DNA of 64,000 nt, from NCBI RefSeq assembly GCF_945952365.1, contig NZ_CAMFHX010000003.1, positions 1 through 64,000 of the forward strand, read 5' to 3'. The position numbers were made by a program, and so were the translations under genes. The notes beneath the pieces are model-generated. The model worked only from the letters and a program-made list of their open reading frames with translations, had not been told where the DNA came from and did no database searches. The DNA is from an uncultured Cetobacterium sp. (lineage in GTDB: Bacteria; Fusobacteriota; Fusobacteriia; Fusobacteriales; Fusobacteriaceae). This document shows positions 15,577 to 39,072 of this stretch, one piece after another; position 1 is the first letter of the stretch; every line of letters starts with the position of its first letter.

Positions 15577-15587
15577 TAGGATTTAGA

Positions 15588-15746: not shown

Positions 15747-15781
15747 TATAGCATAACAAGAAAACGTGTGAGGTGAGTTTT

Positions 15782-16426: not shown

Positions 16427-16427
16427 G

Positions 16428-16462: not shown

Positions 16463-16495
16463 CGATAAAAAATTGTAAGAAGCATAAGTTATTAT
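16453..16495 (+). promoter_or_regulatory. two-box promoter of the kinase-Ppx gene
   Basis: TTGTAA 16453-16458, 14 nt, TTGTAAGA box 16473-16478, 11 nt, TATTAT 16490-16495. Confidence 0.75.
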
Positions 16496-16523
16496 ACATA
16501 TATAAAGATTGCAGGAGGAAAAG

Positions 16524-18533: not shown

Positions 18534-18585
18534 TATATTTTATAATAACTATGTAAAGATAAAAAACAAAACGGAGGAATTATTT

Positions 18586-19299: not shown

Positions 19300-19309
19300 G
19301 GGGAGAGTT

Positions 19310-23229: not shown

Positions 23230-23802
23230 CTATGAAATGCATATTTTTTTAAAATAACAAGAGTTGCATTTTTCAATATTTAGATTTAAGTTTGGAATAT
23301 ATTGCCCTAAAAATATTTTTTTCATCATATTTATATTTTCAAGGCAATTAGCAAAGTCTTCTTTTTCAAAAACTACTTCAATACATTTTATAGCTCCTCT
23401 AGTGTAAACTATATAACCTTTTAATACTGTTACATTATAATTTCTTTTTATTAACAGTGCATATAAAGTTAACTGTATTAAATGCGTTTCGTGAATCTCA
23501 CCCATATACTCTGAAAACTTATACTCCACTGGTGTAGCTTCTTTTGTTGAAAAAAAAATCTCATCAACTATCCCACAAATATCAATATCTTGGTCATATA
23601 TTTTTACTTCTTTTTTATTGGATTCATATTCTTTAAATATTTTTTTTATGTAATTTTGATACTTGAATCTTTTTTTATGAAAGTTACTTCCTTCTTTAAC
23701 TAATGAATTGTTTTCTAATGGTTCTGAAAATTGATGAAGATTTTTAAAATAAATAATTCTTGGACAATAAATATAATTTTTTATATCTGTTACGGTAAAC
23801 AT
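23230..23802 (-). CDS. cas4: Cas4 exonuclease-like adaptation protein
   Basis: A 190-residue Cas4 of the PD-(D/E)xK family. Iron-sulfur cysteines are all present: Cys13 (IYCPR) and CNSCYFKKIC at 179-188. Nuclease landmarks are GIVDEIFF (Asp about 81), TPVEYKFSE (E-x-K about 92-94) and QLTLYAL. Cas4 trims prespacers and helps fix PAM and orientation. It is the last gene of the operon JAB-E1, NYN, E2, RT, cas1, cas2, cas4, directly adjacent to cas2 (1 nt gap). Confidence 0.93.
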   Translation of the reverse strand: MFTVTDIKNYIYCPRIIYFKNLHQFSEPLENNSLVKEGSNFHKKRFKYQNYIKKIFKEYESNKKEVKIYDQDIDICGIVDEIFFSTKEATPVEYKFSEYMGEIHETHLIQLTLYALLIKRNYNVTVLKGYIVYTRGAIKCIEVVFEKEDFANCLENINMMKKIFLGQYIPNLNLNIEKCNSCYFKKICIS

Positions 23803-23803
23803 C

Positions 23804-24091
23804 TCAAATAACCTCTATCAAAGAATCTTTTAAATATTTATTTATATTTATTTTTTGACCATAATATCTCAATGTTTTAAAAGAATCTTTATCTATTTTC
23901 AAAATAATAAAAGAATCTGTTTCCAAAGAGATTAACTGATTACTTTCTACTATTACTTCTTCAATATAGACTTTTTTTATATTTCCTGCAAAAATTGATT
24001 TTTGAAGTCTAAATAAACCTTTATTTTTAAGATATTTAACTATTTTAGCTCTAACCTTTTCTGACGAGATATCATACAGTATCAAGTACAT
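23804..24091 (-). CDS. cas2: Cas2 (RT-linked module)
   Basis: A 95-residue Cas2: YLILYDISSEKVRAKIVKYL with Asp at position 8, GLFRLQKSIFAGNI, and a final FKTLRYYGQK strand. The ATG at 24091 is chosen because AGGAGG lies 9 nt before it; the TTG at 24100 touches that SD and cannot use it. The first codons overlap the end of cas1 by 20 nt. It is a separate lineage from the two Cas2 copies at 5946 and 6230. Confidence 0.92.
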   Translation of the reverse strand: MYLILYDISSEKVRAKIVKYLKNKGLFRLQKSIFAGNIKKVYIEEVIVESNQLISLETDSFIILKIDKDSFKTLRYYGQKININKYLKDSLIEVI

Positions 24092-25037
24092 TTTGATCAA
24101 CCTCCTCTGTAATATTTACAAAGTATTTAGCAACTTCAAATAAATCTTGTTGTATTTTATCAATAGTTTTTATTTTTTTACCTTTAAAAGTAACTAGTTT
24201 ATTTAACTCATTATAATAAAGTGGAACTAAATTTTTTTTACCCTCATCATTCAAAAAGAAAGTATTGTTTTCAACTATAAAATAACTTTTTCTAACTTTA
24301 TTAGCTCTAAAAAACTTTGTAGCAGAAACGTATGCTATATATCGATATTTTTCAATAAAATCAAAAACAAATGATGGACGATTATAGTCATCTCTATGAA
24401 AAAATCCTAAATTTGGATCTATACCTGCAATTAATGAACTTTTTTCTATTCTGTTATATAAAATACCTAAAAAATAATTAACTAAAGCATTAAATTCATC
24501 TAATGCTGGTCTAAAACTTCTTTTTGAAAATTGAAATTGTTTTGGTAATACTTGTGATACTATTGAGAAATAAGTTTTTGAAATATTTCCTTCGAATCCT
24601 CTAATACTATTTAAATCACAATTGTTTTTTAAATTTTCTTGGAATCTGATAATATCTAATAAGTTTTCTTGCTTAGTTAAATCAGATATATGAGAATTCA
24701 TATTTAAAGCTTTTTCCTCTATCCATCTTTTTGAAATTTCTAATCCTAAAGAACTTTTAGAGCATAGGAGTTGTCCTTTTCTTATTTTTGATAGAGTACT
24801 TACTCCTGTACTCCAAAATCTTCCTTTAGGATAGCCATATTTATCTAAAATAACAATATCTATATTATTTTCTATTGCTTCTCTTAAAAATCCCGTTGTA
24901 ATTCTAACGTTTCCAGATATTAAAATACTAGAGATATCTCGATATGAATATTCTAATTTTTCATTTTTTGTTGCTACAACTAATAACTCTGCACTTTTAT
25001 AAAGAGCACATCCGTCTTGAGATATAAATACTTCCAT
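24072..25037 (-). CDS. cas1: Cas1 integrase (RT-linked module)
   Basis: A 321-residue Cas1 with the complete active site: Glu in GFEGN (about 150), His in GFFHRDD (about 218) and FDFIEKYR (about 235). It inserts spacers together with its Cas2. The gene lies 4 nt behind the reverse transcriptase gene, so the two enzymes are made together though not fused. The expected consequence is capture of spacers from RNA as well as DNA, as known for RT-Cas1 systems. AGGTGATATT precedes the ATG. Confidence 0.96.
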   Translation of the reverse strand: MEVFISQDGCALYKSAELLVVATKNEKLEYSYRDISSILISGNVRITTGFLREAIENNIDIVILDKYGYPKGRFWSTGVSTLSKIRKGQLLCSKSSLGLEISKRWIEEKALNMNSHISDLTKQENLLDIIRFQENLKNNCDLNSIRGFEGNISKTYFSIVSQVLPKQFQFSKRSFRPALDEFNALVNYFLGILYNRIEKSSLIAGIDPNLGFFHRDDYNRPSFVFDFIEKYRYIAYVSATKFFRANKVRKSYFIVENNTFFLNDEGKKNLVPLYYNELNKLVTFKGKKIKTIDKIQQDLFEVAKYFVNITEEVDQNVLDTV

Positions 25038-25041: not shown

Positions 25042-25929
25042 TCACCTACTTTTATAAATTTTTTGTCCTAAAAACTCAATTTCACCAGTTTTTTTAAAAT
25101 CAATAACTCTAGATTTTTCATAATTTAAATTTAGCTTATAAGAACTTAAAATATCCTCTATATATATTATTACATTTTTTAAATCTAAATTATTTTTTAA
25201 TAAGACTAAAAAATCATCTGCATATCTTACAAAAGTAACATTACTTTCATTCAATAGTAAATCAAATTTATGTAAATAAATATTTGAATAAAAAGGACTT
25301 AAAGGTGCTCCTTGAATAACTCCTTTTTTCTTTTTAAATATATTGCCACTATAATATATCCCTTGATTTAAAAATCTATTTAAAAGTAGTATTAATTCTG
25401 GATCTTTTATTTTTTCAGCTAATATTTTTTTTAAAAGTTCATGATCTATATTATCAAAAAAAGCTTCGATATCTAAATCTAGTATATAATGATAGCCTTC
25501 ATCTAAATATTTTCTAACTTTCTCTACTGCATCTATATAAGAGATATTTTTTCGATAAGCAAAACTATTTTCTAAAAATTCATTTTCAAAAATTGGACCT
25601 AAGATACTCAGTATTGCATTTTGAACGATTCTATCTTCTAAACAAAGAATACCAATCTCTCGATCTTTACCATTTTTCTTTTTAATAAGTGCTAGTTTTA
25701 CTATCTTTGGAATATAACTATTATTTTCTAATATTTTTGAAAGATTTGATAAAAAATAAATTTCTTGTTCTGATATATCGTTTAGGGTAATATTATTTAT
25801 CCCTGGACCTTTATTTTTCTTTTTAACTTTCAAATATGCATCATATATATTGTCTAATTTTGAAATTTCTTTTAATGTTAATGATCTGTACTTTCCAAAA
25901 CTTCTGTTATCAATTGAAAATAAGTCCAT
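25042..25929 (-). CDS. CRISPR-associated reverse transcriptase
   Basis: A 295-residue stand-alone reverse transcriptase of the group II intron-like type. Motifs: VKLALIKKKNGKDREIGI (motif 1-2), LDLDIEAFFDNIDH (motif A, about 136-149), KGVIQGAPLSP (B), FVRYADDFLVLL (C, YADD about 223-226) and EFLGQKIY (D/E). No maturase X domain, DNA-binding or endonuclease region follows, and no intron RNA is visible, so it is not a mobile intron. It starts inside the last codons of the E2 gene (52-nt overlap; AAAGGTGATA before ATG) and lies 4 nt from cas1. It should make cDNA for RNA-derived spacers. Confidence 0.95.
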   Translation of the reverse strand: MDLFSIDNRSFGKYRSLTLKEISKLDNIYDAYLKVKKKNKGPGINNITLNDISEQEIYFLSNLSKILENNSYIPKIVKLALIKKKNGKDREIGILCLEDRIVQNAILSILGPIFENEFLENSFAYRKNISYIDAVEKVRKYLDEGYHYILDLDIEAFFDNIDHELLKKILAEKIKDPELILLLNRFLNQGIYYSGNIFKKKKGVIQGAPLSPFYSNIYLHKFDLLLNESNVTFVRYADDFLVLLKNNLDLKNVIIYIEDILSSYKLNLNYEKSRVIDFKKTGEIEFLGQKIYKSR

Positions 25930-26546
25930 AAGTTATCACCTTTCTTCCAATCTTCTATATATTTAACAAAATGAGGTTGCCAAGCTCCATTTTCAATATA
26001 AACACAATACCATTTCCAACCAGACTCTAAAGGTTCTTTTGCTGCAGAATGATACGCTAAATTATAAAAATGTCCATTTGGAGATATCTGTAAATCTGCT
26101 TTTAAATAAAATCCTATTGGAGGATTATTTGGATAATCAGATGGAAAAACAATTAATAAAGGAGTTTCTTTAGCTAAAAAATGCCAGTTTTTAGGTAATC
26201 TATAGTTTGGAATTATTAACCAGTCACAATTTTGTTCATCAAATTTTAAATCTTGATTTCTAAATAACTTTGTACCAATATCAATAACTTGGTTTTTTAT
26301 TATATTTTTTGATAAATCAGAACGAAGCTGAAAAAAATTACCTTTTGTTCTATCTGGAATATTACTGATTTTAGTAAAATCATCTAATTTATAAACTCCA
26401 TCATCTTTTATTGTTTCAAAACTATTTTCTTCTTTTTCAATCACAAGTCTTCTATTAGGATTTAGATTAATAGCTTTTTTTATTTGAGATCCATCAACAT
26501 CTTTTGGTGTTGGTATTGAAACTCTTTTTCCATTTATAATAGCCAT
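25878..26546 (-). CDS. ubiquitin-like domain fused to prokaryotic E2 (family E type)
   Basis: A 222-residue fusion. Residues about 1-68 resemble the multi-ubiquitin-type beta-grasp domain (INGKRVSIPTPKDVDGSQIK, NPNRRLVIEKE, VYKLDDFTKI). Residues about 75-222 match the prokaryotic E2 family E pattern: FPSDYPNNPPIGFYL (134-148), SPNGHF (155-160), His166, GWKWYCVY with Cys181 as probable catalytic cysteine, and a TYFQLITEVL end. E2 proteins carry activated ubiquitin-like proteins as thioesters. The Ubl lacks a free C-terminal glycine tail, so it may guide binding rather than be conjugated. It lies in an operon with JAB-E1, an NYN-like protein and RT-cas1-cas2-cas4. Confidence 0.8.
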   Translation of the reverse strand: MAIINGKRVSIPTPKDVDGSQIKKAINLNPNRRLVIEKEENSFETIKDDGVYKLDDFTKISNIPDRTKGNFFQLRSDLSKNIIKNQVIDIGTKLFRNQDLKFDEQNCDWLIIPNYRLPKNWHFLAKETPLLIVFPSDYPNNPPIGFYLKADLQISPNGHFYNLAYHSAAKEPLESGWKWYCVYIENGAWQPHFVKYIEDWKKGDNLWTYFQLITEVLESTDH

Positions 26547-26547
26547 A

Positions 26548-27084
26548 TTATAAGTTCACCTCACTTTCAATCTCACTTATATTATTAATATCTTTTATAT
26601 TTTCTTTCATAATTTCATTTATTGAGATAACTCCTTGTGCAATTCCTTTTAATCTCTCATTTTCATAGTTGTCGACTGAAATTAACTCTACTCTAATACC
26701 TCTATCTCTAAGAGTTTTTAGTAATGGATAAAACATACTATTTACAGATCCGAAGACAAGAATATCAATTTTGAGTTCTGAAACAAATTTTAAAATATCT
26801 ATAATCATTTCAATTTCATAAAAATTATAATCCTCCTCTTCTTTTGAGTAACTAATTGTTTTTTTTATTAAAAATCCTGATTTTTCAATATTTTCAATTA
26901 ATAATCTTTCAGTATTTTCTGTTGCATAGTTTAAATTAAAGTATGCATAAGCATCAATTAATTTTCTTCCTTCTTCTAAATTACCTAAATATTCTAAAAA
27001 TTTTTCATAATTTAATTCTATTTCCGATTTTGATACTGCATTTTGAAAACTAAAAAAATCTAAAACTACTCCAACTCTTTCCAT
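26548..27084 (-). CDS. NYN/LabA-like protein with altered active site
   Basis: A 178-residue protein with an NYN (PIN-like) Rossmann fold: VGVVLDFFSFQNAV at the N-terminus (D and N of the first motif kept) and ILVFGS...FYPLLKTLRDRGIRVELIS near 125-145. In active NYN nucleases the second motif reads SGDxDF; here the acidic positions are Ser and Asn (FGSVNSMF), so catalysis is probably lost or changed. It lies between the JAB-E1 gene (15 nt) and the Ubl-E2 gene (1 nt) and has a strong GGAGGG site. Possible roles are RNA binding or serving as conjugation target (inference). Confidence 0.65.
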   Translation of the reverse strand: MERVGVVLDFFSFQNAVSKSEIELNYEKFLEYLGNLEEGRKLIDAYAYFNLNYATENTERLLIENIEKSGFLIKKTISYSKEEEDYNFYEIEMIIDILKFVSELKIDILVFGSVNSMFYPLLKTLRDRGIRVELISVDNYENERLKGIAQGVISINEIMKENIKDINNISEIESEVNL

Positions 27085-27099
27085 TTTTTCCCTCCTTTT

Positions 27100-28425
27100 T
27101 TATAGGTTACATATAAAACAATCTTTTTTTCTATTTTTTATACTCATATTATCCTCATAAATAGTTGGTATTTTATTATTTTCATAGACTAAAATAGAAC
27201 TTTCTCTATTATAATTTGTAAACTCATTTATATAACTATCAACGGCTAATGAAGCTAAAATAGTATTTAATGTTTTTACTGCGGGGTCTTTATGCTGCGT
27301 TATATATCCTCTTTTTAAAATTTTTTCTTTAATCTCTTCACTTTTAATATTTTCATAATCAATATTTATCTGCTTTACTCTTCCTAAGCATCTTAAACAA
27401 AATTTCTCTCCTGGAAATATTTTAATAACTTCTCCACTTATATCAGATACAATACCATTTTTAACACTTATATTTACACCTATAGAAATAAATGGGATAA
27501 AGTATCTTAAGCAAAAATCATTAACAAATGCCCTGCTTGAATGATTATCTGTTGTTAAAAAAACTTTATTACTTTCTAACACTTCATTTAGTGCTTCATC
27601 TGATTTAATATCTGAGTTTATGGCTTTTATATTTAAAAAAGGATTTATTGATAATAAATGTTCTTTTAATACTTCAACTTTTAATCTTTTATCTTCAGCA
27701 TCTTTATATTTTGCACCAACTAATCTGTTTAGGTTTGAGTATTCAACAATATCATTATCTATTAAAACTAAATTATTAAAACCCATATTGATTAAATGTT
27801 CAGCAACCACAGAACCTAAACCACCAACTCCTACTATTGAAATTTTTTCAGTTGAAAATATCTTTTTTAAATTGTCAATTCCCATATAATCAATGTTTCT
27901 ATTATAAATATCTAAATATTTAGGATCCTGAATCTCTTTAGTAATATTCCATTCTTTTATTTCAATCTCTTCTATTTTTTCATCTAGATATATTCGTCCT
28001 TTATAAGAGTTGTTTGAAAAAACTAAACTTGCATAACTTGTTTTTGGATAATTTTCTTTTAAGTATTCTTTAAAATTTTTTTCATCTTCATCATCTATTG
28101 ATGAAAAGCTTACTTTACTATTTGACTCTAAAAAAGGATGGGTATGTATTTCTACTAATGTATCAACATCGACTCTTTTATCTAAATCTAAAAGTATTTT
28201 GTAAATGAAATCTTTTTTTATAGAGATATGAGTTAAACTAGAACTTAATATTTCACTTTGTTTAGGATAACAAATCTCTATCTCTTTTAAAATAACCAAT
28301 TTATTAACCTGCTCTCTTTTAGCCAGTATTATACAAAACTGTTCTTTTTTTTCATCTGAAAATAGATTTTTAAATATTTTATTCAAACTGTTTTTTTTAA
28401 AGCGTATTTCATATTTTTCATCCAA
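27100..28425 (-). CDS. JAB protease-E1 activating enzyme fusion
   Basis: A 441-residue fusion. Residues about 30-150 are a JAB/JAMM isopeptidase: EIHTHPF (His94, His96) and SSIDDED (Ser/Asp ligands), which in this family cuts ubiquitin-like proteins. Residues about 185-440 are an E1/ThiF adenylation domain: GVGGLG (199-204), LIDNDIVEYSNLNR, FLTTDNHSSR, with zinc-type cysteine pairs CLRC and CFIC. I choose TTG 28425 as start: AGGAGG lies 6 nt before it, whereas the upstream ATG (28455) overlaps the -10 of the promoter and lacks an SD. It heads the seven-gene operon ending in cas4. Confidence 0.82.
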   Translation of the reverse strand: MDEKYEIRFKKNSLNKIFKNLFSDEKKEQFCIILAKREQVNKLVILKEIEICYPKQSEILSSSLTHISIKKDFIYKILLDLDKRVDVDTLVEIHTHPFLESNSKVSFSSIDDEDEKNFKEYLKENYPKTSYASLVFSNNSYKGRIYLDEKIEEIEIKEWNITKEIQDPKYLDIYNRNIDYMGIDNLKKIFSTEKISIVGVGGLGSVVAEHLINMGFNNLVLIDNDIVEYSNLNRLVGAKYKDAEDKRLKVEVLKEHLLSINPFLNIKAINSDIKSDEALNEVLESNKVFLTTDNHSSRAFVNDFCLRYFIPFISIGVNISVKNGIVSDISGEVIKIFPGEKFCLRCLGRVKQINIDYENIKSEEIKEKILKRGYITQHKDPAVKTLNTILASLAVDSYINEFTNYNRESSILVYENNKIPTIYEDNMSIKNRKKDCFICNL

Positions 28426-28454
28426 TTTTAGCCTCCTATTTTTAATTTTACTCA

Positions 28455-28497
28455 TTTATACAAATTTCTTTTTACCTGAAAAATGAAAACTTTACCT
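28455..28497 (-). promoter_or_regulatory. two-box promoter of the JAB-E1/E2/RT/cas operon
   Basis: Read on minus: AGGTAA (28497-28492), 14 nt, AGGTAA (28477-28472), 11 nt, TATAAA (28460-28455). Both boxes carry the same AG variant, which supports a true direct repeat. Transcription should begin near 28448, downstream of the ATG at 28455. Confidence 0.65.
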
Positions 28498-28541: not shown

Positions 28542-30050
28542 ATGAGGGAAATTTACTTAGAAACTTTAAAAAATGCAATGAATGATTTTAACTATAGTAT
28601 TAGGAAAGAAGATTTATTTAAAGCAACTGAAATATATCACCTCTTAACTTTTGTAGGTCTTTCTAAAATTAGAGAATATGAAAATAGTAATATTGAAAAT
28701 AGTTGTTCTCTTTTTCCATCTTTAAAAAAATTAACGATGTTTTGTACTGATGAATCGTTAAATAATGCAATTTCACTTAAAAATAAACTTTTAAAACCAG
28801 ATTTTGAAATTCAAATCATAATTATGGATGCTAATATTTCAAATAGAAATCTTTATCACAATATTTTAAAAGTAATTAATTATCAGGATTTTGATTCTAT
28901 TTTTTTTGATACAACTCAAGGAATGAAAACTATAAGTATTGCATTTTACAAATTGGGAGTAGAGTTGGGAATTAAATCTTTAAACTGGGTATCGACTCAC
29001 TCTTTGAAAGATGATTATAATCTTTTTAGATGTATTGATAGCTTAAGAATCGATTTTTTAACCAATCCTAAAAATGAAAACTATAAATTTTTTAAACTTC
29101 TAAACGATTCAATTGATAATTATGATTTTAAAGGTGTTGCGAATCTATATAAAAGTATAAATGATAATGAAAAGTCTTTCTTTTTCGAATCGTTATCTCG
29201 TTTATTTGATGATTCTTGTATTGATATTAATTTTTTCAAAAATAATCTCAAAGATTTTATTTTTAGTTTTTCAAAACTATCTTCTTTTTCTCGAAAAAGA
29301 TTTAAAGAAGTTTTTAATATTTTCAATTTTTTTCTAAATGAAGCTGAATCGGATACTTCAATTGTTTCTTTTGATTCTTTAAGTGAGTTTGGATTTGTGG
29401 ATAGTGTAACAGAAGATGAAATTGAATATCTTTATAACTATCTTTTTATTCCTTTTCTTCTGAAAAAAATAAAAAATATAAATATTAGAGAGTTTATCTT
29501 TTCAAAGTACTTAAGTTGGTGTTTTAATAATAGAACAGTTGACTACACTATAGATAATCCGAGTTTTTATTTTGATATCTTAAATAATTTTTTTCATATG
29601 AGACAGGTTGAAGTATTTAAAAATACCTTAAATTTTACAAATTTATTAAAAGAGAAAAGGGTTGACTTTATAAATTTTTCTATGAATAGAATTGAAATTG
29701 AAGGTTATGAAATAATTTTTTCAAATAAATTTATTAGTAATTTTTTTGGAAGAGATTTAAAAAGTTTTGTTTTGAGAAGTCTTATAAATAATAAGAATAA
29801 AGAAGTTTTTATGATGGAAATTATAGATTTGATTGATAAATTAGAAATTAAAAATATATCTAAAGCTTTTTCAGATTTAGAAAAGAATTTTAAATTACTT
29901 AATATTGAATTAAATAATTTATTCTTAGAGGAAAAACTAGAATATAGAGACATCATTAAATATGTTCCCAATAAAGAGACTCGTTTAACAAATTATAAAT
30001 CTATCATTTTGAATCAATATTATTCTCCTAAAATATATATTAATATTTAA
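28542..30050 (+). CDS. CARF-domain protein with unknown effector part
   Basis: A 502-residue protein with an N-terminal CARF-like Rossmann domain: LTMFCTDESLNNAISLKNKL (about 64-83), and the ligand-loop signature FFDTTQGMKTIS (about 121-132), then INWVST-like strand. CARF domains bind cyclic oligoadenylates made by Cas10. The remaining 300 residues are helical, with no R-x4-6-H HEPN motif and no nuclease motif I can see, so the output is unknown. It resembles the CARF protein at 41866 in layout. CGGAGG precedes the ATG. A strong terminator separates it from array 3. Confidence 0.7.
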   Translation: MREIYLETLKNAMNDFNYSIRKEDLFKATEIYHLLTFVGLSKIREYENSNIENSCSLFPSLKKLTMFCTDESLNNAISLKNKLLKPDFEIQIIIMDANISNRNLYHNILKVINYQDFDSIFFDTTQGMKTISIAFYKLGVELGIKSLNWVSTHSLKDDYNLFRCIDSLRIDFLTNPKNENYKFFKLLNDSIDNYDFKGVANLYKSINDNEKSFFFESLSRLFDDSCIDINFFKNNLKDFIFSFSKLSSFSRKRFKEVFNIFNFFLNEAESDTSIVSFDSLSEFGFVDSVTEDEIEYLYNYLFIPFLLKKIKNINIREFIFSKYLSWCFNNRTVDYTIDNPSFYFDILNNFFHMRQVEVFKNTLNFTNLLKEKRVDFINFSMNRIEIEGYEIIFSNKFISNFFGRDLKSFVLRSLINNKNKEVFMMEIIDLIDKLEIKNISKAFSDLEKNFKLLNIELNNLFLEEKLEYRDIIKYVPNKETRLTNYKSIILNQYYSPKIYINI

Positions 30051-30090
30051 AAAACAAGAGATGATTTATCTTAGTCATCTCTTGTTTTTT
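30051..30090 (+). terminator. terminator of the CARF gene
   Basis: AACAAGAGATGA/TCATCTCTTGTT stem with a 10-nt loop followed by TTTTTT; it lies just before the distal end of array 3 and may stop array transcription from the other side as well. Confidence 0.85.
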
Positions 30091-30099
30091 TGTATTTAA

Positions 30100-31118
30100 C
30101 TCTTAATCCCTTTCAGGGATATTTTTTTATTTTGAGAACTAATTGGCAAACTGGAGAAACAAAGGAAAACTTGTCTTAATCCCTTTCAGGGATATTTTTT
30201 TATTTTGAGAGAAGGTTCTATGTATAAAGGCTTCTTATCAGCGTATGTCTTAATCCCTTTCAGGGATATTTTTTTATTTTGAGGCCGCATTCTTTGGGAA
30301 CATGAAGATTGATGCGAACGAGGTCTTAATCCCTTTCAGGGATATTTTTTTATTTTGAGCGTCAAAGAGCTTGTGAGATTATTTCATTAGGAAGAAAGTC
30401 TTAATCCCTTTCAGGGATATTTTTTTATTTTGAGTTAATACAGGTAACTATGAATCATCAAGTTCTAAAGTGTCTTAATCCCTTTCAGGGATATTTTTTT
30501 ATTTTGAGTTGCTAAATCTCAAGCCAGAGATACTGAGCTTGAAAATAGTCTTAATCCCTTTCAGGGATATTTTTTTATTTTGAGGTACATATGGGGAACA
30601 AAGGAAGATTAGGCTTATTCATTGTCTTAATCCCTTTCAGGGATATTTTTTTATTTTGAGCTTGGTAGCTTAACAGGTTCTTCTACTTTATCATCAGTAG
30701 GGTCTTAATCCCTTTCAGGGATATTTTTTTATTTTGAGCCAAAAGGATGTATTTAACGCTAGAATGGAGCAGTCTGTAGTCTTAATCCCTTTCAGGGATA
30801 TTTTTTTATTTTGAGATAAAACCTCTTATATTCGATGCGGATTTAAAGTTGACAAAGTCTTAATCCCTTTCAGGGATATTTTTTTATTTTGAGTTTAGAG
30901 TCGGTAATGGCTCTTCTTTGAAAGGCGTAAAGTCTTAATCCCTTTCAGGGATATTTTTTTATTTTGAGAAAAAAAACAAAAATAAGGAGGAATTTATTAT
31001 GTCTAAGTCTTAATCCCTTTCAGGGATATTTTTTTATTTTGAGAAAGCGTTAGGATTATCTCAAGAAGAGAATAAATGGTTGTCTTAATCCCTTTCAGGG
31101 ATATTTTTTTATTTTGAG
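30100..31118 (-). CRISPR. CRISPR array 3, 14 repeats, 13 spacers
   Basis: Fourteen 37-nt repeats at 30100, 30173, 30247, 30323, 30398, 30472, 30548, 30624, 30702, 30779, 30857, 30932, 31007 and 31082. On the plus strand each reads GTCTTAATCCCTTTCAGGGA then a T-rich part ending TTTTGAG; the first has C for G at position 1. The stem ATCCC-TGAAA-GGGAT suits a Cas6 product. The long AT-rich leader with a promoter is on the right, so the crRNAs come from the minus strand and end in GGATTAAGAC, similar to GGATTGTGAC of arrays 1 and 2. Spacers are 36-41 nt. Confidence 0.98.
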
Positions 31119-31378
31119 CCGTTAGTTTTCATAGAACTCTTAATTATAGAGCTTTTATAGTATATTTTCTTTTAGTAAAATTTAGTAATTTTCTCTAAAA
31201 TTTATACTAGCTAGGATAGAAAACGCTTGTAATTTGTCTCTTGAAACATCTAATTTAGTAAAAATTTAGATACCTAAAAACCTCTTCTATTGAGCTACCC
31301 TTTTATATCTTGATTTGTCCATAGAAAAATTTTCTGGGTCTATGATATAATTATAGCATATAAAAAGTAAGTTTTCAA
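31119..31378 (-). promoter_or_regulatory. leader and promoter of array 3
   Basis: A gene-free 260-nt AT-rich stretch. On the minus strand it has TTGAAA (31378-31373), 17 nt, TATAAT (31355-31350) within TATATGCTATAAT, the same extended -10 as in the leaders of arrays 1 and 2. The first repeat follows about 230 nt downstream. Confidence 0.7.
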
Positions 31379-31440: not shown

Positions 31441-32778
31441 TTATAAATTTTTTAAAAGTTTTAACCAAAATTCACATGTATATCTTTTTTCATTCTGTGT
31501 AAATGCTTTATAAAAATGACTTCTCATGTATTCAGGTAGCTCATTCCAAAGAGTATTCCAAATTCCTTTTGGAGTATTTTCTAATTCTTTTCCGTCTACA
31601 CTATATTTAAAATCAGAGGTTTTAATTCTTTCAACTAATGTTTTATCACTTTGTCTCTGATCGTAAGGGTGTTTTCCTCTCATTAAAATTTTAAAAAGAA
31701 GTATAGAAATTGGAAAATATTCATTTGAAATATCTCTTATATATGTCCCCATATTTTCACCACTAAACTCTGGTGGTAAAAATTCCTCTTTAAAAACATA
31801 ACATGGGTAATTCTCAATCTGATACGAATCTATATCTATAAGACATATCTCATCATTGTCATTAACAAGGATATTATTTGGATTAATATCCCCTATTAAA
31901 ATATTTTTTTTATGAAGACTATTTATTGTTGTTAAGATATTTCTAGCAATTTTTTTCGCACTTTCTTTATCTTTGAGAGTTAAAAGTACTCTTTCCAAAG
32001 TTTTTCCTTCAAATTTCTTCATACTATAACCTACGATCTCATTTAATTCATTAAAAACAATACCTTCTAGTGTTGCTACATTAGGAATTAATATATTCTT
32101 ATTAGATAAAAGCTTAAGCTTTTCAACTCTTTCCTCTGTTAGTTTATTTGCATGAAAGATTTTTATAGCTAAATCTTCATAAAAATAGATTTTGCCTTCT
32201 CCTCCTTCGGCTAAACTTTCAGGTAAAATTATAGACTTCTCTTCTCCTTTTGATACAATTTTTATTGTATCTTTCTCTTCTGGAATATTGGTATTTATTA
32301 TTGTCTTAGAATTATCAACCTTTATTGCTTCTTTAACAGACTTTTGTTTTCCAAAATATGCTAAGGTATCTATTAGATCCCCAAATTCATCAACTTTTTT
32401 TATATAAACATTTCTATAGTTAACCGATTTGCAAGTTTTTGTTTTTAAAAGATCTCGTGCTAAGTTTTTATCATCTGTTATTATTAACATATCCTTTTGA
32501 ATAGCTCCATCATGAACTCTTGCCAATATAGCCGCATCAGCATGAGCTGTGGCGGAAGCTTTTACATGTATCAATCTATTTTTCCTGTTTAAAACCTCTA
32601 ATATTTTTGATGCTGTTCTTAATTCCTCTAAATTTTTCCCCTTACTTTGTAGTTTTTTTAGCTCTTTAAAGCTTTCTTCAAACACACAAAATTGTGATAT
32701 ATTAGATTTAGAAATAAATTTTAGAGTATTACTATTCATTAATGCACATGTATCTATTACAACTATTTTTTGAATCAT
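31441..32778 (-). CDS. PIN-domain nuclease fused to protein kinase
   Basis: A 445-residue fusion. Residues 1-145 are a PIN domain with acidic residues placed for catalysis: IDTCALMNS (Asp9), FEESFKEL (Glu34/35), HADAAILAR (Asp81) and ITDDKNLA (Asp102/103), so ribonuclease activity is expected. Residues about 185-445 are a kinase of the same family as the one at 16524: EGGEGKIYF (191-199), AIKIF (Lys206), IGDINPNNIL (Asp297), IDID (314-317) and NEYFPISILLFKIL. The ATG at 32778 follows AGGAGG; upstream in-frame codons are AT-rich noise beyond the promoter. Phosphorylation may gate the nuclease (inference). Confidence 0.88.
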   Translation of the reverse strand: MIQKIVVIDTCALMNSNTLKFISKSNISQFCVFEESFKELKKLQSKGKNLEELRTASKILEVLNRKNRLIHVKASATAHADAAILARVHDGAIQKDMLIITDDKNLARDLLKTKTCKSVNYRNVYIKKVDEFGDLIDTLAYFGKQKSVKEAIKVDNSKTIINTNIPEEKDTIKIVSKGEEKSIILPESLAEGGEGKIYFYEDLAIKIFHANKLTEERVEKLKLLSNKNILIPNVATLEGIVFNELNEIVGYSMKKFEGKTLERVLLTLKDKESAKKIARNILTTINSLHKKNILIGDINPNNILVNDNDEICLIDIDSYQIENYPCYVFKEEFLPPEFSGENMGTYIRDISNEYFPISILLFKILMRGKHPYDQRQSDKTLVERIKTSDFKYSVDGKELENTPKGIWNTLWNELPEYMRSHFYKAFTQNEKRYTCEFWLKLLKNL

Positions 32779-32802
32779 TTTTTTCCTCCTAGTTTTTTTT
32801 CT

Positions 32803-32845
32803 ATTATACTTTGAAGAGATTACAAAAAATTTAAACAATTTACAT
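32803..32845 (-). promoter_or_regulatory. two-box promoter of the PIN-kinase gene
   Basis: Read on minus: ATGTAA (32845-32840), 14 nt, TTGTAA (32825-32820), 11 nt, perfect TATAAT (32808-32803). Confidence 0.75.
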
Positions 32846-32865
32846 TTTTTCTTTTCATAACTATT

Positions 32866-32908
32866 TTGTAATTTTGAATAAAAAATTGTAATATACATAT
32901 ATTAAGAT
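32866..32908 (+). promoter_or_regulatory. two-box promoter of csx20
   Basis: TTGTAA 32866-32871, 14 nt, TTGTAA 32886-32891, 11 nt, TAAGAT 32903-32908. It is divergent from the PIN-kinase promoter with only 20 nt between the two sites. Confidence 0.7.
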
Positions 32909-32951: not shown

Positions 32952-33332
32952 ATGAGTACTATGTTTTTACTTTTCTCTCATAAACTAACTAATGAACAAA
33001 TTGCATCTGCTAAAAAAGATTTAAATTGTGAAAATTTAGTTTATTTACCAAGAGAGTTACAAAATCTTTGGTCTAATATTCCTGCTACTGAGCAAGACTA
33101 CGAGCATTTGATACATTTTGAAAACTTTATTTTTAAAAACTATAAAGAAGGCGATTACGCACTTATACAAGGTGATTGGGGTTATACCTACCATATGATT
33201 AATTTTTGTAAAAAAATTGGAGTTATTCCTATATATTCAACTACAGAAAGAAATTCTAGAGAGGTTTTCAACCAAGATGGAAGTGTTTCAAAGATATCTT
33301 TATTTAAACATGTGATTTATAAACGTTATTAA
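32952..33332 (+). CDS. csx20: Csx20, CRISPR type III accessory protein
   Basis: A 126-residue protein that I recognise as Csx20: MFLLFSHKLTNEQIASAKKD, LVYLPRELQNLWSNIP, YALIQGDWGYTYHMINF and IGVIPIYSTTERNSRE, with FKHVIYKRY at the end. The family accompanies type III loci and has been placed among proteins that degrade cyclic oligoadenylate (ring nucleases). Its position between the CARF gene, the PIN-kinase and cas10 fits a signal-removal role. It has its own two-box promoter while the Cas10 operon 84 nt downstream does not show one. GAGGTGAG precedes the ATG. Confidence 0.85.
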   Translation: MSTMFLLFSHKLTNEQIASAKKDLNCENLVYLPRELQNLWSNIPATEQDYEHLIHFENFIFKNYKEGDYALIQGDWGYTYHMINFCKKIGVIPIYSTTERNSREVFNQDGSVSKISLFKHVIYKRY

Positions 33333-33415: not shown

Positions 33416-35068
33416 ATGTATTTAGTATCAGTAGAAACTGTTAAAATTAAGGATTTTATTTTTAACACCAACAAACTAAAAACAATAAGAGGTGCTAGTT
33501 TTTTATTAGACTATTTAAATCAAGTTGTTGTAACCGATATTTTAAAGAAAAATCATGTCGAGGATAAAGATGTTCTTTATATCGCTGCAGGAAATGCTAA
33601 ATTTTATTGCAAAGATAAAGAGGTGGCTAAAAAAATAGAAATTGAAATTATGGAGGCTTACAATAATTTTGCTCCAGATTCAAAGCTAGCTATATCATAT
33701 ATAGATGCTGGAAATGAAAAAGTTTGGGTTGCTATGGATAAACTAGCTAAAGAAACCAATATTGTTAAAAATAAAGGGTTTTCGAAAATAAATTTAGATC
33801 TACCATTTATACAAAGATGTGATATCTGTTGTGAAAATCCAGTAGAAATAAAAAAAGAAAATTTTAATGAAACTTTAAAAAACTATGTTAAAAATTTTGA
33901 ACCATATTTAGAGAGAGAAAAATCTAAAAATAATGCAAATGAAAAATTAAAAACTTTAAATGATAGATATAAAATAGAGTCTCAAATTTTTGATAAAGAT
34001 AAAATTTCTGGAATCTGTCCATCATGTTTTGCAAAATATATAGCTGCAAATCTTATTAAAGAGGATTTCCAAGAGATTGGGTTTTATTCTGATTTTAAAA
34101 AAGAGTTTAAAGATGAGTTTAAACCTGTAGATAGCTTGGAAGAATATAAATTAAAGAAATCATTTATAGGTTTTATGTACTCTGATGGAGATTCCGTTGG
34201 TGAATTTTTAAAGAATGCTAAGGAAAATTTCCAAGATGAAGCAAAATATAAAGAGTTTATAAAAACATTCTCAGTAACTTTAGATAAACATACTAAAGGT
34301 AGCTTAATCGAAGTTTTAAAAGAGTTAAGAGAGGAAAATAAGCTTGATGAACACTTTGGAGAGTTTCTAATTGTAGGAGGAGACGACGTTTGTGCTGTCT
34401 TTCCTGGAGATATAGTTATGGAAGTCTCTACAAGATTCCAAGAAAGATTCAACGCTAAAATGAAAGATTACTATAAAACTTGTAACTTCAAAAAGAATGG
34501 TAGCAATATAACATCTTCAGGTGGTGTTGTTATAGCTAAAGCTAAAACACCTATGTATTATCTTTTTGATCAAAGTCTGACTCTTCAAAAAAATGCAAAG
34601 AAAAAGAGATATGAAACATATGAAAATAAAAATGTAGAGTTTAAAAATGGATTTATTGATTTCGCAGTTATAGGTTCTGAAGGAACAGTTAATATTGCAG
34701 AGTTCAGAAAAAGAATTAAAAACCTTATTCAAAGACCATATTCTATTGAAGATATTGATTCTTGTAAAAAAATCAATAGTTTAGTTCAATTAATTGAAGA
34801 TTTAAAAACTTCTAACTTCCCTAAAAATAAGTTAAGAATGTACTATGATTTAAAAGTTGAAATTGAGAAAAATCCTAATAAATCTATAGAAAACCTATTT
34901 TCACTTATTAATACTATTGTAAAACTTGATTCTGAACAAAAAGAATTAATTTTAAGTTGGATTGGTAAGGAAAATTTAAATAACTCTCAGGAAGATACAT
35001 TGAAAAATATATTAAATAATATTTTTGATGTAATTGAACTTTATGATTTTGTAGGGGGGAGTAAATAA
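33416..35068 (+). CDS. cas10: Cas10 (type III large subunit) without HD domain
   Basis: A 550-residue Cas10. It begins directly with the first palm-like domain (VSVETVKIKDFIFNTNKLKT) and has no N-terminal HD nuclease region, which normally takes 100 or more residues. Zinc ligands are CDICC (135-139) and CPSC (201-204). The second palm carries YSDGDS (255-260) and the cyclase motif VGGDDV (GGDD 321-324), so cyclic oligoadenylate synthesis should be intact. A helical D4-like region ends the protein. It heads an operon of coupled effector genes. The promoter region shows TATAAT at 33377-33382 but no two-box pattern. Confidence 0.93.
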   Translation: MYLVSVETVKIKDFIFNTNKLKTIRGASFLLDYLNQVVVTDILKKNHVEDKDVLYIAAGNAKFYCKDKEVAKKIEIEIMEAYNNFAPDSKLAISYIDAGNEKVWVAMDKLAKETNIVKNKGFSKINLDLPFIQRCDICCENPVEIKKENFNETLKNYVKNFEPYLEREKSKNNANEKLKTLNDRYKIESQIFDKDKISGICPSCFAKYIAANLIKEDFQEIGFYSDFKKEFKDEFKPVDSLEEYKLKKSFIGFMYSDGDSVGEFLKNAKENFQDEAKYKEFIKTFSVTLDKHTKGSLIEVLKELREENKLDEHFGEFLIVGGDDVCAVFPGDIVMEVSTRFQERFNAKMKDYYKTCNFKKNGSNITSSGGVVIAKAKTPMYYLFDQSLTLQKNAKKKRYETYENKNVEFKNGFIDFAVIGSEGTVNIAEFRKRIKNLIQRPYSIEDIDSCKKINSLVQLIEDLKTSNFPKNKLRMYYDLKVEIEKNPNKSIENLFSLINTIVKLDSEQKELILSWIGKENLNNSQEDTLKNILNNIFDVIELYDFVGGSK

Positions 35069-36666
35069 TGATAATAAAGTACAGTGCTGTTTTACAAACA
35101 CCAGCGATGACTGGAAAAGATGGAGTTATTGGAAAGGATTTAGATATTATTACAAAACTTGATAACAATGGTCTTCCATATTTTAGTGCTTCTACAATAA
35201 AAGGTATTTTAAAAGAAAAGGTATCTTTATTTTCGACAGCTTTAAACTTTAATTTTCCTATCAATAAGTATTTTGGAGTAGAAGGTGAGATTGAATCAGG
35301 TATGAGATTATCTCCTTTAACAATGGATTCTAAGAAATACTTAGAATATAAGGAGTTTTTAACTGATGATAGATCAGGAATTAGAATAGATAAAGCTAGT
35401 AAAACTACAGCTGAAGGTTCACTATTCTCATATGAGTTTATTAGAAGCGAATTGGAGTTTACTGGAGAGATTGAAATTTTTTATCCTCTTGAAGGAGAGA
35501 ATCTTAAATTTTTCAAAGCTTGTTTAGAAAGAATAGAGGCTATTGGTGGTTTAAAGTCAAGAGGATTGGGTAAAGTTAAAATTAAAGTTTTAGAATGTAT
35601 TGAAAATAAAAATAACTCTCATAAAACTTTAAATACAAGTAATCTAAAAGAGTACAGCTACACTCTTAAACCTTTAGAAAATTTAATTTTAAAAAATCAA
35701 GAGATTGGTAATGAGATTACAACTAATAACTATATTCATGGTGGAACTTTAAGAGGAGCTATTATCTCTCTTTTAGACAGAGAATTTAATGTAGATACCG
35801 AAGCTCTTATTAAAAACTTAAAAGTATCTCAAGGGTTACCTAAAGATCATTTTGTAGCTTCGGCTTCTATTTTACAAAGTAAGTATCCTGTTAAAAATGG
35901 AAAGGTAGTTCGTATAAATAAACTTTTAGCTAAGAACTCTGAAGATAAAGTTGATGGTAAAGAGGTTAAATTTGAAAGATATGGCTCTCCAATTGTTAAT
36001 AAAAACTTTGAAAAATTAGTTTTAAATAAACAAAGTGAAATAAATATTGCAATTGATAGTAAAACTAAAACCTCTGAAGAGGGTATGCTTTTTAATAAAG
36101 AGATATTTTTAGCTAAAGATATGGAGTTTTCAGGAAAAATAGTTTTAAGTGAAGAGATTGTTAAAACTATTTCAAATAGATATATCTATATTGGAAAAAA
36201 TAAAAGCAAAGGATTTGGAAAATGTTTGATAACTTTTGAACCTACAAATTTGAAGAAAGAAAAAGTTGATTCGAGTAAACTTCAAAGATTATCAAGGGAG
36301 ATTGGAACAGATAAAAAATATTTTACAATAGATTTTAATTCAGATATGATTTTACCATTTATGGATACTGAATCTATTGGTAACAAAATTAAAGCGCTTT
36401 TAGGTTTAGAATCAGTTATATGGGAAGAGAGTAAAAGTTTTATCAATCTAATCTCAATTGGTGGTTATAATCAATTAAACAAAATTAGAAAATCTACAGA
36501 GTTTGCTATTGCAAAAGGTGGAGTATTAACTTTTTCAACTACTGAATTTACTAACGACCTAATTCAAAAACTAAGTTCTATCCAAGAAAAAGGGATAGGA
36601 AGTAGAAAAAATGAGGGGTTTGGAGATGTTGAAATCAGCAGTAAAACTCATTTGGAGGTAAAATAA
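35068..36666 (+). CDS. fused RAMP protein, Cas7 (Csm3-like) plus Csx10/Cas5-like
   Basis: A 532-residue protein with two RAMP units. The first (about 1-185) is Csm3/Cas7-like: YFSASTIKGILKEKV, RSGIRIDKASKTTAEGSL and the glycine-rich GGLKSRGLGKVKI. The second (about 195-530) resembles Csx10: YIHGGTLRGAIISLL, IYIGKNKSKGFGKC (third G-rich element) and EKGIGSRKNEGFGDVEI at the end. Such proteins belong to type III-D effector complexes, where they line crRNA. The ATG overlaps the cas10 stop (TAATG). Catalytic Asp for RNA cutting cannot be fixed by eye. Confidence 0.82.
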   Translation: MIIKYSAVLQTPAMTGKDGVIGKDLDIITKLDNNGLPYFSASTIKGILKEKVSLFSTALNFNFPINKYFGVEGEIESGMRLSPLTMDSKKYLEYKEFLTDDRSGIRIDKASKTTAEGSLFSYEFIRSELEFTGEIEIFYPLEGENLKFFKACLERIEAIGGLKSRGLGKVKIKVLECIENKNNSHKTLNTSNLKEYSYTLKPLENLILKNQEIGNEITTNNYIHGGTLRGAIISLLDREFNVDTEALIKNLKVSQGLPKDHFVASASILQSKYPVKNGKVVRINKLLAKNSEDKVDGKEVKFERYGSPIVNKNFEKLVLNKQSEINIAIDSKTKTSEEGMLFNKEIFLAKDMEFSGKIVLSEEIVKTISNRYIYIGKNKSKGFGKCLITFEPTNLKKEKVDSSKLQRLSREIGTDKKYFTIDFNSDMILPFMDTESIGNKIKALLGLESVIWEESKSFINLISIGGYNQLNKIRKSTEFAIAKGGVLTFSTTEFTNDLIQKLSSIQEKGIGSRKNEGFGDVEISSKTHLEVK

Positions 36667-37052
36667 TGGATTTGTTAAGAGAGAAAGCTTTAAAAATAGT
36701 TGATAATAGATCTAATGAAATAATTAAAGAGTTTATTGAGGGAAAATTTAACTTTAAAACTGCTACTAAATCTCAGTTTGCAACTTTAGAAGGAATTTTA
36801 GAACAAAGAAATTTCAACTTAGAGTCTGAGAAAATAGAGGATTTTATACTTCAAAAACTACAAAAACAAAAAAGTGAAGATTTTTTTAAAGATGTATTTA
36901 AAAACTATATAGAAAAAAGAGAAGTGATTTTAAATTTTTTAAACTCTTCTGAAGAGGATACCAAAGTTAAAAATCAAATTTTCAGAGAGATTTTTTATCT
37001 AATTAAAATTAGTTTTAGAAAAGAAAACGCTTTAAAAACTTTAAATATTTAG
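36666..37052 (+). CDS. cas11: small subunit, Cas11-like
   Basis: A 128-residue, all-helical protein rich in Lys, Glu and Phe. Its size and place between the RAMP genes of the effector operon fit the small subunit (Cas11) that stacks along the target strand in type III complexes. Sequence conservation in this family is poor, so the call rests on position and helical composition. The start ATG overlaps the previous stop by 1 nt (TAATG). Confidence 0.75.
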   Translation: MDLLREKALKIVDNRSNEIIKEFIEGKFNFKTATKSQFATLEGILEQRNFNLESEKIEDFILQKLQKQKSEDFFKDVFKNYIEKREVILNFLNSSEEDTKVKNQIFREIFYLIKISFRKENALKTLNI

Positions 37053-37064: not shown

Positions 37065-37814
37065 ATGAATTTTAGTCAATTTAAAAATAGATATGTTATC
37101 ACAGGAGAGCTAACAGTTGAAAATGCTCTTCACATTGGAAGTGGAAAAGTTGAAGGAGATTTTGACTCAGCTTTTATAAAAACAGGAGAAAATGGTTACT
37201 ACATTCCAGGGTCATCTTTTAAAGGGTATTTAAGAAGTAAAGTTGAAGGATTTTTAGTTGGGTCACCGTTTGGATTAAAAGCTGGAAATGATTTGTTAAA
37301 TGAAGGGGATGTTCTTGGAATATTTGGTTATACAAGTTCTGATATCTCAAAAGATGATAAAGTTACAGAGAGATTAAATAAAATATTAGGAGCAGATTTT
37401 AAAAATTTTGCTTCTAAACTTCATATATCTGATTTACAAATTATGGATAACAATACAAAAGAGGTAACTAGAGATGGTATCAAAATATCTAGAAAAACTG
37501 GGGCAACTGTAAAAGGAGCTAAATTCGACTACAATGTTATTGAGAAAGGAAATAAGTTTTCTCTTGAAATGAGTTTAGAAAATATAGAAGATTATCAACT
37601 GGAACTTATTATGTTGGGATTAAAAGATATCCTTGCTGGAGATTTGTTTGGTGGAAAACTTTCAAGAGGTATTGGAAAGTGTAAATTAGAATTAAAAGCT
37701 TGTAAATTTGTAGATTCAAATGATAAAGAGTCTTTAAAGAACTATATATTTAAAGGTGAATTAAAAACAAAAGATATAAAAACTCTTAATAAAATAACTA
37801 AAATATCACTATAG
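37065..37814 (+). CDS. cas7: Cas7 (Csm3-like) backbone subunit
   Basis: A 249-residue RAMP protein of the Csm3 type: ENALHIGSGKVEGDFDSAFI near the N-terminus, with Asp at the place used by Csm3 for target-RNA cleavage, IPGSSFKGYLRSKVE, RDGIKISRKTGATV and the G-rich FGGKLSRGIGKCKL. It should form part of the backbone that holds crRNA and cuts target RNA at 6-nt steps. GGGGAGGG lies before the ATG. It is one of four Cas7-type genes in this operon, as in type III-D. Confidence 0.9.
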   Translation: MNFSQFKNRYVITGELTVENALHIGSGKVEGDFDSAFIKTGENGYYIPGSSFKGYLRSKVEGFLVGSPFGLKAGNDLLNEGDVLGIFGYTSSDISKDDKVTERLNKILGADFKNFASKLHISDLQIMDNNTKEVTRDGIKISRKTGATVKGAKFDYNVIEKGNKFSLEMSLENIEDYQLELIMLGLKDILAGDLFGGKLSRGIGKCKLELKACKFVDSNDKESLKNYIFKGELKTKDIKTLNKITKISL

Positions 37815-37823
37815 GGGGATGCT

Positions 37824-38678
37824 ATGTTTAATGTTAATAAAAATGAGATAAAAATATCTCTTAAAATTACTCCTAAATCTCCTCTTTTAATTAAGGCTAG
37901 TGATGATGTTCAGGAGAAGGGAAATCTAATTCAATGGAATACTACAGCTGGTAGTAAAGAGGCATTTATTCCTGGTTCAACTCTTAAAGGTATGTTAAAA
38001 GATATTTTCTATTCAATTTGGTATGACCACTTTAACTTAGAAGAGGATAAGTTTAAAGAGATTCCAGAGGGAAAGTATAAAAATGATGATAAAGTATATG
38101 ATTATGAAGATTATATGGAGGATATTTTAAAAGAAAAAGGTGAGGATGTTTTCTTGGAGAAATCTTTAAAAATATCTAAACTTTTTGGAGCTAAAAATCT
38201 TAAAAGTAGACTTCATATAGATGATGCTTATTTTAAAAAACATGGAAAAGAGGAGAAAGGTCCCAAAGTTGAAAAAGAGGAACCTAAATCAATTACGCCA
38301 ATAGATAGATTTACTGGTGGTGCTGTTGTTCCGTTACAATTTGAATATACAACTGATGCTTTTGTAACTGAGCTAACTATTAAAAATATTGAAAAACATG
38401 AATTAAAAGCTTTGCTTTTTGCAATAAGAGATAGTATTGATGGTGATGTTAGAATTGGTTCTTCTAAAACTAGAGGATTTGGAGAGATTGAGTTATCTAT
38501 TGAAAGTATGGAATATAAGGAGTTTAAAAATAGCTCTTTAACTTTAGATAGTTCTAACTTTAATCTAGACACAGAGAAATCTTTAAAATTAGGAGAAGAC
38601 TACCTATATAAAGTTTATAAATTAAAAGAGAACGAACCTTTGAAAAATTTTGAAATTCTAAAGAAAGTGGTTGGGTGA
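37824..38678 (+). CDS. cas7: Cas7-type RAMP subunit
   Basis: A 284-residue RAMP protein: SLKITPKSPLLIKASDD, FIPGSTLKGMLKD, SITPIDRFTGGAV (the RFTGGA element typical for Csm3/Cas7 in III-D) and IGSSKTRGFGEIEL. The region 80-120 is an acidic insertion. It is a backbone subunit of the same complex. GGGGGATG precedes the start. The end overlaps the next gene by 4 nt (GTGA). Confidence 0.88.
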   Translation: MFNVNKNEIKISLKITPKSPLLIKASDDVQEKGNLIQWNTTAGSKEAFIPGSTLKGMLKDIFYSIWYDHFNLEEDKFKEIPEGKYKNDDKVYDYEDYMEDILKEKGEDVFLEKSLKISKLFGAKNLKSRLHIDDAYFKKHGKEEKGPKVEKEEPKSITPIDRFTGGAVVPLQFEYTTDAFVTELTIKNIEKHELKALLFAIRDSIDGDVRIGSSKTRGFGEIELSIESMEYKEFKNSSLTLDSSNFNLDTEKSLKLGEDYLYKVYKLKENEPLKNFEILKKVVG

Positions 38679-39070: not shown

Positions 39071-39072
39071 TT

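What the first reader, a model, noticed from the sequence alone, without database searches (positions are those of the whole stretch)
30100..31118. Spacers of array 3 are antisense-oriented, including one covering a start codon and SD
Read on the plus strand (opposite to crRNA), 12 of 13 spacers have an open frame that reads like protein (for example TNWQTGETKEN, QKDVFNARMEQSV, KALGLSQEENKW), and by hand count they are about 58% purine, as coding strands are. Spacer 30969-31006 holds an AAGGAGG site, then ATGTCT: the crRNA would pair with the ribosome-binding site and start of an mRNA. This fits RNA targeting and possibly spacer capture from RNA by the nearby RT-Cas1.
Basis: partly seen in the sequence, partly recalled or inferred. 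Interest (0 to 1): 0.8.

Follow-up and report, generated by a model that had tools for sequence, protein, structure and literature searches.

The report
Type III CRISPR array with antisense spacers
A bacterial immune memory bank holds snippets stored almost always in the direction that lets its guide RNAs pair with an invader's messenger RNA; the pattern is real, but neighbouring memory banks without a reverse transcriptase show it too, so it reflects RNA-targeting immunity and does not prove that the snippets were copied from RNA.

Summary
Array 3 (13 spacers, crRNA on the minus strand) has 58.1% purine on the crRNA-complementary strand, an open frame there in all 13 spacers, and one spacer with AAGGAGG-N8-ATG. 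Array 3 alone is marginal under a codon model (10 of 13, p=0.09). Across seven arrays of its repeat family in three Fusobacteriota genomes, 70 of 82 spacers read as coding on the target strand (p=4e-11; estimated 93% antisense). Type I arrays of the same bacterial family give 257 of 514.

RNA targeting is well supported: the genome has one Cas10 (III-D-like) and no Cas3 match, and in RT-less arrays all six perfect self-matching spacers lie in the harmless sense orientation. RNA capture by the RT is not shown: RT-less arrays are antisense to a similar degree (47 of 63), and published RT-Cas1 systems acquire with little strand bias. Selection through transcript-dependent interference suffices. 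The start-codon spacer is ordinary (4 of 82, 1.5 expected). No array 3 protospacer was found. The RT is separate from Cas1, in a gene row with ubiquitin-like E1-JAB, E2 and NYN genes conserved in three genomes.

The parts
30100..31118 (-). CRISPR array 3: 14 repeats of 37 nt, 13 spacers; transcribed on the minus strand; target (mRNA-like) strand is plus
30969..31006 (-). spacer holding AAGGAGG (30984-30990) and ATG (30999-31001) on the plus strand: crRNA would cover a ribosome-binding site and start codon
   Evidence: a 23-nt match to a C. somerae gene context suggests a common local initiation motif
31119..31318 (-). leader of array 3 (AT-rich, conserved in relatives)
   Evidence: 71-74% to four G001 arrays, 65% and 50% to G013 arrays
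30050..30091 (.). terminator-like hairpin between the CARF gene and the distal end of the array
   Evidence: read from the sequence; seen in the downstream alignment
25042..25929 (-). stand-alone reverse transcriptase, group II intron-like, YADD intact
   Evidence: Pfam RVT_1 1.7e-35, TIGR04416 below cut-off, PADLOC RT, alignment
24072..25037 (-). cas1 (E149, H214, D226 invariant in three orthologues; catalytic role recalled)
   Evidence: Pfam 7.3e-62
23804..24100 (-). cas2
23230..23802 (-). cas4
25878..26546 (-). prokaryotic E2 (UBC-like) with possible N-terminal ubiquitin-like segment
   Evidence: Prok-E2_E 5.4e-7; Multi_ubiq 0.0016, below cut-off; fold search top hits are E2 enzymes, E 0.016 or weaker
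26548..27084 (-). NYN-domain predicted RNase
   Evidence: 2.2e-13
27100..28455 (-). JAB-E1 (ThiF) fusion
   Evidence: ThiF 2.1e-41; Prok-JAB 0.042, below cut-off; JAMM-like residues read by eye
28542..30050 (+). CARF-domain protein beside the array
   Evidence: PADLOC CARF 1.1e-10
31441..32898 (-). PIN-like and kinase-like domain protein
32952..33332 (+). Csx20-like ancillary protein
   Evidence: PADLOC 2.7e-43
33416..35068 (+). cas10 (GGDD present; no HD domain reported by the searches)
   Evidence: only Cas10 match in G000
35068..36666 (+). Csx10-like Cas5/Cas7 subunit (III-D marker)
   Evidence: PADLOC Cas5_IIId 3e-32; TIGR02674 93 bits, below cut-off 177
36666..37052 (+). small subunit candidate (position only)
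   Evidence: no convincing family
37065..41064 (+). Csx7-like and TIGR03986 RAMP subunits plus one small unknown gene
41077..41865 (+). cas6
   Evidence: TIGR01877 1.4e-23
41866..43530 (+). second CARF-domain protein
   Evidence: PADLOC 5.5e-13
4188..4879 (+). control array 1 (9 spacers, beside RT-less cas1-cas2-cas2; three spacers match own chromosome, all sense)
8295..8855 (-). control array 2 (7 spacers, same repeat as array 1)

Best explanation
Array 3 is an ordinary, apparently working type III-D-like CRISPR array. Its spacers come from protein-coding sequence of mobile elements not found in the collections searched, stored so that roughly nine in ten crRNAs of the family would pair with mRNA. 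The orientation is mainly kept by selection: Cas10-Csx10 interference acts only when the crRNA pairs with a transcript, so antisense spacers against invaders protect and are retained, while antisense spacers against the host are lethal and lost. Shown here: the orientation of the array, the family-wide antisense bias, its absence in type I arrays, its presence in RT-less type III-linked arrays, and the sense orientation of all six self-spacers found. Inferred: that interference is active, that selection is the cause, and that the spacers come from phages or plasmids. The RT may also capture RNA, but nothing here requires it.
For: Codon-model strand calls: RT-linked family 70 of 82 (estimated 0.93 antisense, 0.84-0.99), RT-less A1-type family 47 of 63 (0.79, 0.65-0.90) or 45 of 57 without six self-spacers (0.84), type I arrays 257 of 514 (0.49, 0.44-0.54). 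A second model trained on Fusobacterium phage Fnu1 also gives 70 of 82. Codon phase with composition kept: target strand better in 61 of 82, p=8e-7. Two related spacers in different G001 arrays (L059:14619-14654, L061:5738-5778) differ in the shared VTATMEY stretch only at third codon positions on the target strand (sequences). G000 has one Cas10 and no Cas3 match at 1e-10; G006 likewise has Cas10 and no Cas3 match. Six of six perfect self-matches (three in G000 array 1, three in G006) are sense to host genes, p=0.03; one spacer of array 1 is antisense to a gene on a 6.4-kb contig of G005 with two mismatches. Published: type III spacers favour the coding strand in natural arrays (PMC8482600, passages); selection alone makes strong bias (PMC7515739, passages).
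Against: Array 3 by itself is only 10 of 13. No protospacer of array 3 was found in own genome, genus, phages, plasmids, or with the six virus-contig patterns that came from it, so source and selection are not seen directly. One RT-less array (G6a) shows no bias, 7 of 14, three of the 14 being self-spacers. Type I control arrays vary (estimates 0.26 to 0.89), and four large ones of one repeat class together give 116 of 277, a slight lean the other way (my sum). RT-linked arrays showed no self-spacers (0 of 23 in the well-scanned arrays against 6 of 30, p=0.03), which selection alone does not predict.
Confidence: 0.74

Rival explanations
1. The RT with Cas1-Cas2-Cas4 captures mRNA and inserts it in a fixed direction, so spacers are antisense from the moment of capture.
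For: Intact RT beside cas1 in one gene row, kept in three genomes. Highest antisense fraction is in RT-linked arrays (0.93 against 0.79 or 0.84). No self-spacer in RT-linked arrays: 0 of 23 well scanned, 0 of 73 with the lightly scanned ones, against 6 of 30 and 6 of 38; fixed antisense insertion would make every self-spacer lethal.
Against: RT-less arrays show the same bias; the difference is not significant (p=0.10, 0.14 and 0.37). Most of the 0-of-73 searches scored only 4 to 8 candidates per genome. M. mediterranea RT-Cas1 gives only a moderate bias without interference (PMC5576922, passages); a review says RT-active systems have no strand bias outside rRNA genes (PMC9048733, passages).
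Confidence: 0.14
2. The machinery prefers purine-rich ends or strands for sequence reasons, and coding strands being purine-rich is a coincidence.
For: Target strands are purine-rich (0.564 in the RT family).
Against: Codon phase remains when composition is held (61 of 82, p=8e-7); synonymous differences between two related spacers; two unrelated repeat families share the bias; type I arrays show none.
Confidence: 0.05
3. Array 3's pattern is chance and the reader saw words in AT-rich sequence.
For: 10 of 13 is p=0.09; an open frame is found in 9.9 of 13 shuffles on average.
Against: Strand-flip purine test P=0.0025; the 69 spacers of related arrays give 60 of 69.
Confidence: 0.05

Closest known systems
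RT-Cas1-linked type III CRISPR (Marinomonas mediterranea III-B; Vibrio vulnificus III-D, the latter known to me only from a passage in PMC9048733)
   Same: Group II intron-like RT with Cas1 and Cas2 beside a type III effector; III-D type as in Vibrio
   Different: RT is a separate gene; Cas4 is present; the gene row also holds E1-JAB, NYN and E2 genes; RNA capture untested
Type III systems without RT, e.g. Thermus thermophilus (PMC7515739, passages)
   Same: Spacers that survive are antisense to transcripts because of selection
   Different: Here an RT is present; bias is read from codon usage, not from a known phage
Coding-strand bias of natural type III arrays (PMC8482600, passages)
   Same: Same direction and similar strength (88% in Moraxella III-B)
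   Different: That study needs matched protospacers; here strand is read from spacers with no known source
RT-lacking and RT-linked arrays of Arthrospira platensis (PMC5513706, passages)
   Same: RT-linked spacers with almost no traceable source
   Different: No strand analysis was found there with the search terms

Membership tests
Type III-D CRISPR-Cas | Cas10 with GGDD cyclase motif | tested here: met
   Cas10 palm2 5.2e-18; GGDD read in the translation
Type III-D CRISPR-Cas | Csx10-type subunit | tested here: inconclusive
   PADLOC Cas5_IIId 3e-32 but TIGR02674 at 93 bits, below its cut-off of 177
Type III-D CRISPR-Cas | Several Cas7-like RAMP subunits, Cas6 and an array | tested here: met
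RNA-targeting type III immunity | crRNAs antisense to transcripts | tested here: met
   70 of 82 in the repeat family, by codon usage, not by mapped transcripts; array 3 alone 10 of 13, not significant
RT-linked CRISPR adaptation | Intact RT beside or fused to cas1 | tested here: met
   adjacent, YADD conserved; not fused
RT-linked CRISPR adaptation | Acquisition of spacers from RNA | not testable with these tools
   needs an acquisition assay
Fused RT-Cas1 | One polypeptide with RT and Cas1 | tested here: not met
   separate ORFs 25042-25929 and 24072-25037

The most novel reading that the evidence does not exclude
In this Fusobacteriota lineage the RT adaptation module, working with a ubiquitin-like E2, JAB-E1 and NYN nuclease trio in the same gene row, captures spacers from mRNA in a fixed antisense direction, which is why its arrays are about 93% antisense and show no self-spacers, unlike sister RT-less arrays that collect harmless sense self-spacers.
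Probability: 0.1. Interest if true: 0.8.

Novelty: new member of a known kind. Interest (0 to 1): 0.42.

Why it matters
Spacers of RT-linked CRISPR arrays mostly match nothing in databases (PMC5513706, passages). Reading strand from codon usage, with type I arrays of the same family as a 50:50 control, indicates that such spacers of unknown source come from coding sequence and are antisense. It also separates two questions often merged: that an array targets RNA, and that its spacers were copied from RNA. The contrast in self-spacers between RT-linked and RT-less arrays gives a direct test of whether an RT module inserts spacers in one direction.

Tried and rejected
Open frames as evidence: weak, since 9.9 of 13 shuffled spacers also have one. 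Enrichment of start codons as a sign of 5'-end RNA capture: 4 of 82 against 1.5 expected, P=0.07; the RT-less family has 1 of 63; all five on the target strand. Protospacers: for array 3; for its relatives. Phage-collection hits were short and weak; the best, 70 nt at 76% to an unannotated phage record (MT835609.1, E=0.01), was not followed up, and a 31-nt match to phiX174 and kin spans a repeat border. One relative's spacer (L061:5208-5244) matches a repeated intergenic hairpin in several Fusobacteriaceae genomes, including G000:C12 and G035:C4; no Rfam family was found on it above its cut-off, and a pattern for it has no match in viral contigs. Eight viral-contig scans found nothing: six patterns from array 3 (codon patterns for 9-10 residues of five of its 13 spacers, which can only find genes in the frame I assumed, and one exact 27-mer of a sixth spacer), one codon pattern from a G013 spacer, one for the hairpin. 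The genome-contig scan with a Cas1 alignment found nothing; the E2 alignment found two distant loci. Leader-proximal and distal halves of RT-linked arrays do not differ (36 of 43, 34 of 39).

Limits: strand calls assume spacers are coding; the host model was trained on 72 long ORFs without curation. Type I control: 17 regions beside cas3 loci, out of 25 rows above the cut-off, were fetched; three had no array, leaving 17 arrays in 14 genomes; their crRNA direction was set from the repeat ends by recalled rules. Spacers outside 20-60 nt (24-60 for arrays added) were filtered out; one search reported no odd gap, and one search did not print what it dropped. Searches of 61 genomes scored few candidates per genome, so absence of self-spacers is firm only for array 3 and L059:14432-15212.

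Full report
What is there. The window lies in a genome of genus g1, which I take to be Cetobacterium from a coordinate-identical hit to a C. somerae plasmid in G007, same genus. Array 3 (30100-31118) has 14 repeats and 13 spacers. The plus strand is therefore the one a target RNA would have.

Plus-strand purine is 291 of 501 (58.1%), more than half in 12 of 13 spacers; flipping strands at random reaches this with P=0.0025. All 13, not 12, have an open frame on plus, 11 on minus, but shuffles give 9.9. The start-codon spacer is as described: AAGGAGG at 30984-30990, ATG at 30999-31001. Its core also occurs exactly in a C. somerae plasmid at a gene annotated frc (23 nt), so it is probably a common local initiation context.

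A test that needs no protospacer. I scored each spacer on both strands with a codon model trained on host genes; on 38-mers of Fusobacterium phage Fnu1 genes it picks the right strand in 94%, on host genes in 88%. Array 3: 10 of 13. Six further arrays of the same repeat family in G001 and G013: 60 of 69. Together 70 of 82, p=4e-11, estimated 93% antisense. The Fnu1-trained model also gives 70 of 82. With letter composition held, codon phase still favours the target strand in 61 of 82 (p=8e-7). Two spacers in different G001 arrays share VTATMEY and differ there only at third positions.

Controls. Seventeen type I arrays in 14 genomes of the same family give 257 of 514. Single arrays vary (one nominally significant of 17, p=0.017). 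Seven arrays with the repeat of arrays 1 and 2 or close relatives of it, which in the window lie beside cas1-cas2-cas2 without RT, give 47 of 63; I did not annotate the cas1 neighbours of the other five. Two of them are in G006, where no RT of this kind was found at 1e-10. The RT-linked family does not differ significantly from them (p=0.10 and 0.14; 0.37 without self-spacers).

Self-spacers. Array 1 has three spacers identical to the host chromosome: in genes for a D-Ala-D-Ala carboxypeptidase and a lytic transglycosylase, and at the end of a helicase gene. Array G6a of G006 has three, in a ribosome hibernation-like gene, a symporter-like gene and a thioredoxin-like gene (names by eye). In all six the crRNA has the sense of the mRNA and cannot pair with it (p=0.03). 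Another spacer of array 1 is antisense, with two mismatches, to a gene on a 6.4-kb contig of G005. This is what transcript-dependent interference would leave: antisense against others, sense against self. G000 has no Cas3 match at 1e-10 and a single Cas10 match, so these arrays appear to have only a type III effector to serve.

Interpretation. RNA targeting is well supported. RNA capture is a separate claim and is not shown. Thermus thermophilus, without RT, acquires from both strands and ends with strong bias through selection (PMC7515739, passages). In Marinomonas, RT-Cas1 acquisition without interference is only moderately antisense (PMC5576922, passages), and a review states no strand bias outside rRNA genes for RT-active systems (PMC9048733, passages). 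Natural type III arrays in general favour coding strands (PMC8482600, passages). What selection alone does not explain is the lack of self-spacers in RT-linked arrays, 0 of 23 well scanned against 6 of 30 (p=0.03), though the numbers are small and most further scans were shallow.

The neighbourhood. RT, cas1, cas2 and cas4 are the downstream part of one strand-uniform gene row that starts with JAB-E1, NYN and E2; the order looks the same in G001 and G013 (identities checked for Cas1, RT and E2, the rest by size and order only). The E2 has weak support for an N-terminal ubiquitin-like segment (Multi_ubiq 0.0016, below cut-off); a low-confidence model finds E2 enzymes as its best structural matches. 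A Proteobacteria MAG contig carries E2, JAB-E1 and NYN next to a Cas6. A search of the held library for RT-Cas1 with ubiquitin and type III gave no paper, and the titles showed none on this gene row; that is not proof that it is unpublished.

Noticed in passing
25878-28455 (with RT-cas1-cas2-cas4 to 23230): Ubiquitin-like conjugation genes (JAB-E1, E2) and an NYN RNase in one row with the RT adaptation genes, same order in G001 (L059:8913-14120) and G013 (L062:12608-17759); E2 is 91% and 68% identical there, more conserved than the RT (81%, 54%).
   Followed up: partly
L064:452-4268: Proteobacteria MAG contig with E2, JAB-E1 and NYN next to a Cas6 gene: a second CRISPR link of the trio. L065 (Armatimonadetes MAG) has NYN, E2 and E1 by eye, with no cas gene recognised by eye in 9 kb.
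   Followed up: partly
4225-4258, 4370-4406, 4444-4477 (array 1): Three perfect self-matching spacers to the host's own chromosome (G000:C5, C13, C24), all sense to the mRNA; three more of the same kind in G006 (L136:5515, 5594, 6130).
   Followed up: yes
L061:5208-5244: Spacer of an RT-linked array matching a repeated intergenic hairpin with a following T-run in several Fusobacteriaceae genomes; no Rfam family above cut-off.
   Followed up: partly
5946-6514: Two different cas2-like genes in a row after the RT-less cas1 (first one, second by eye).
   Followed up: no
12958-20125: A row with Hsp70-like, von Willebrand-type, kinase and phosphatase-like genes (by eye) upstream of the CRISPR locus; a similar row lies upstream of the effector genes in G013 (L079:2699-6962).
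   Followed up: no
31441-32898: PIN-like plus kinase-like protein between array 3 and the effector operon, also present beside the array in G013 (L079:10380-11717).
   Followed up: no
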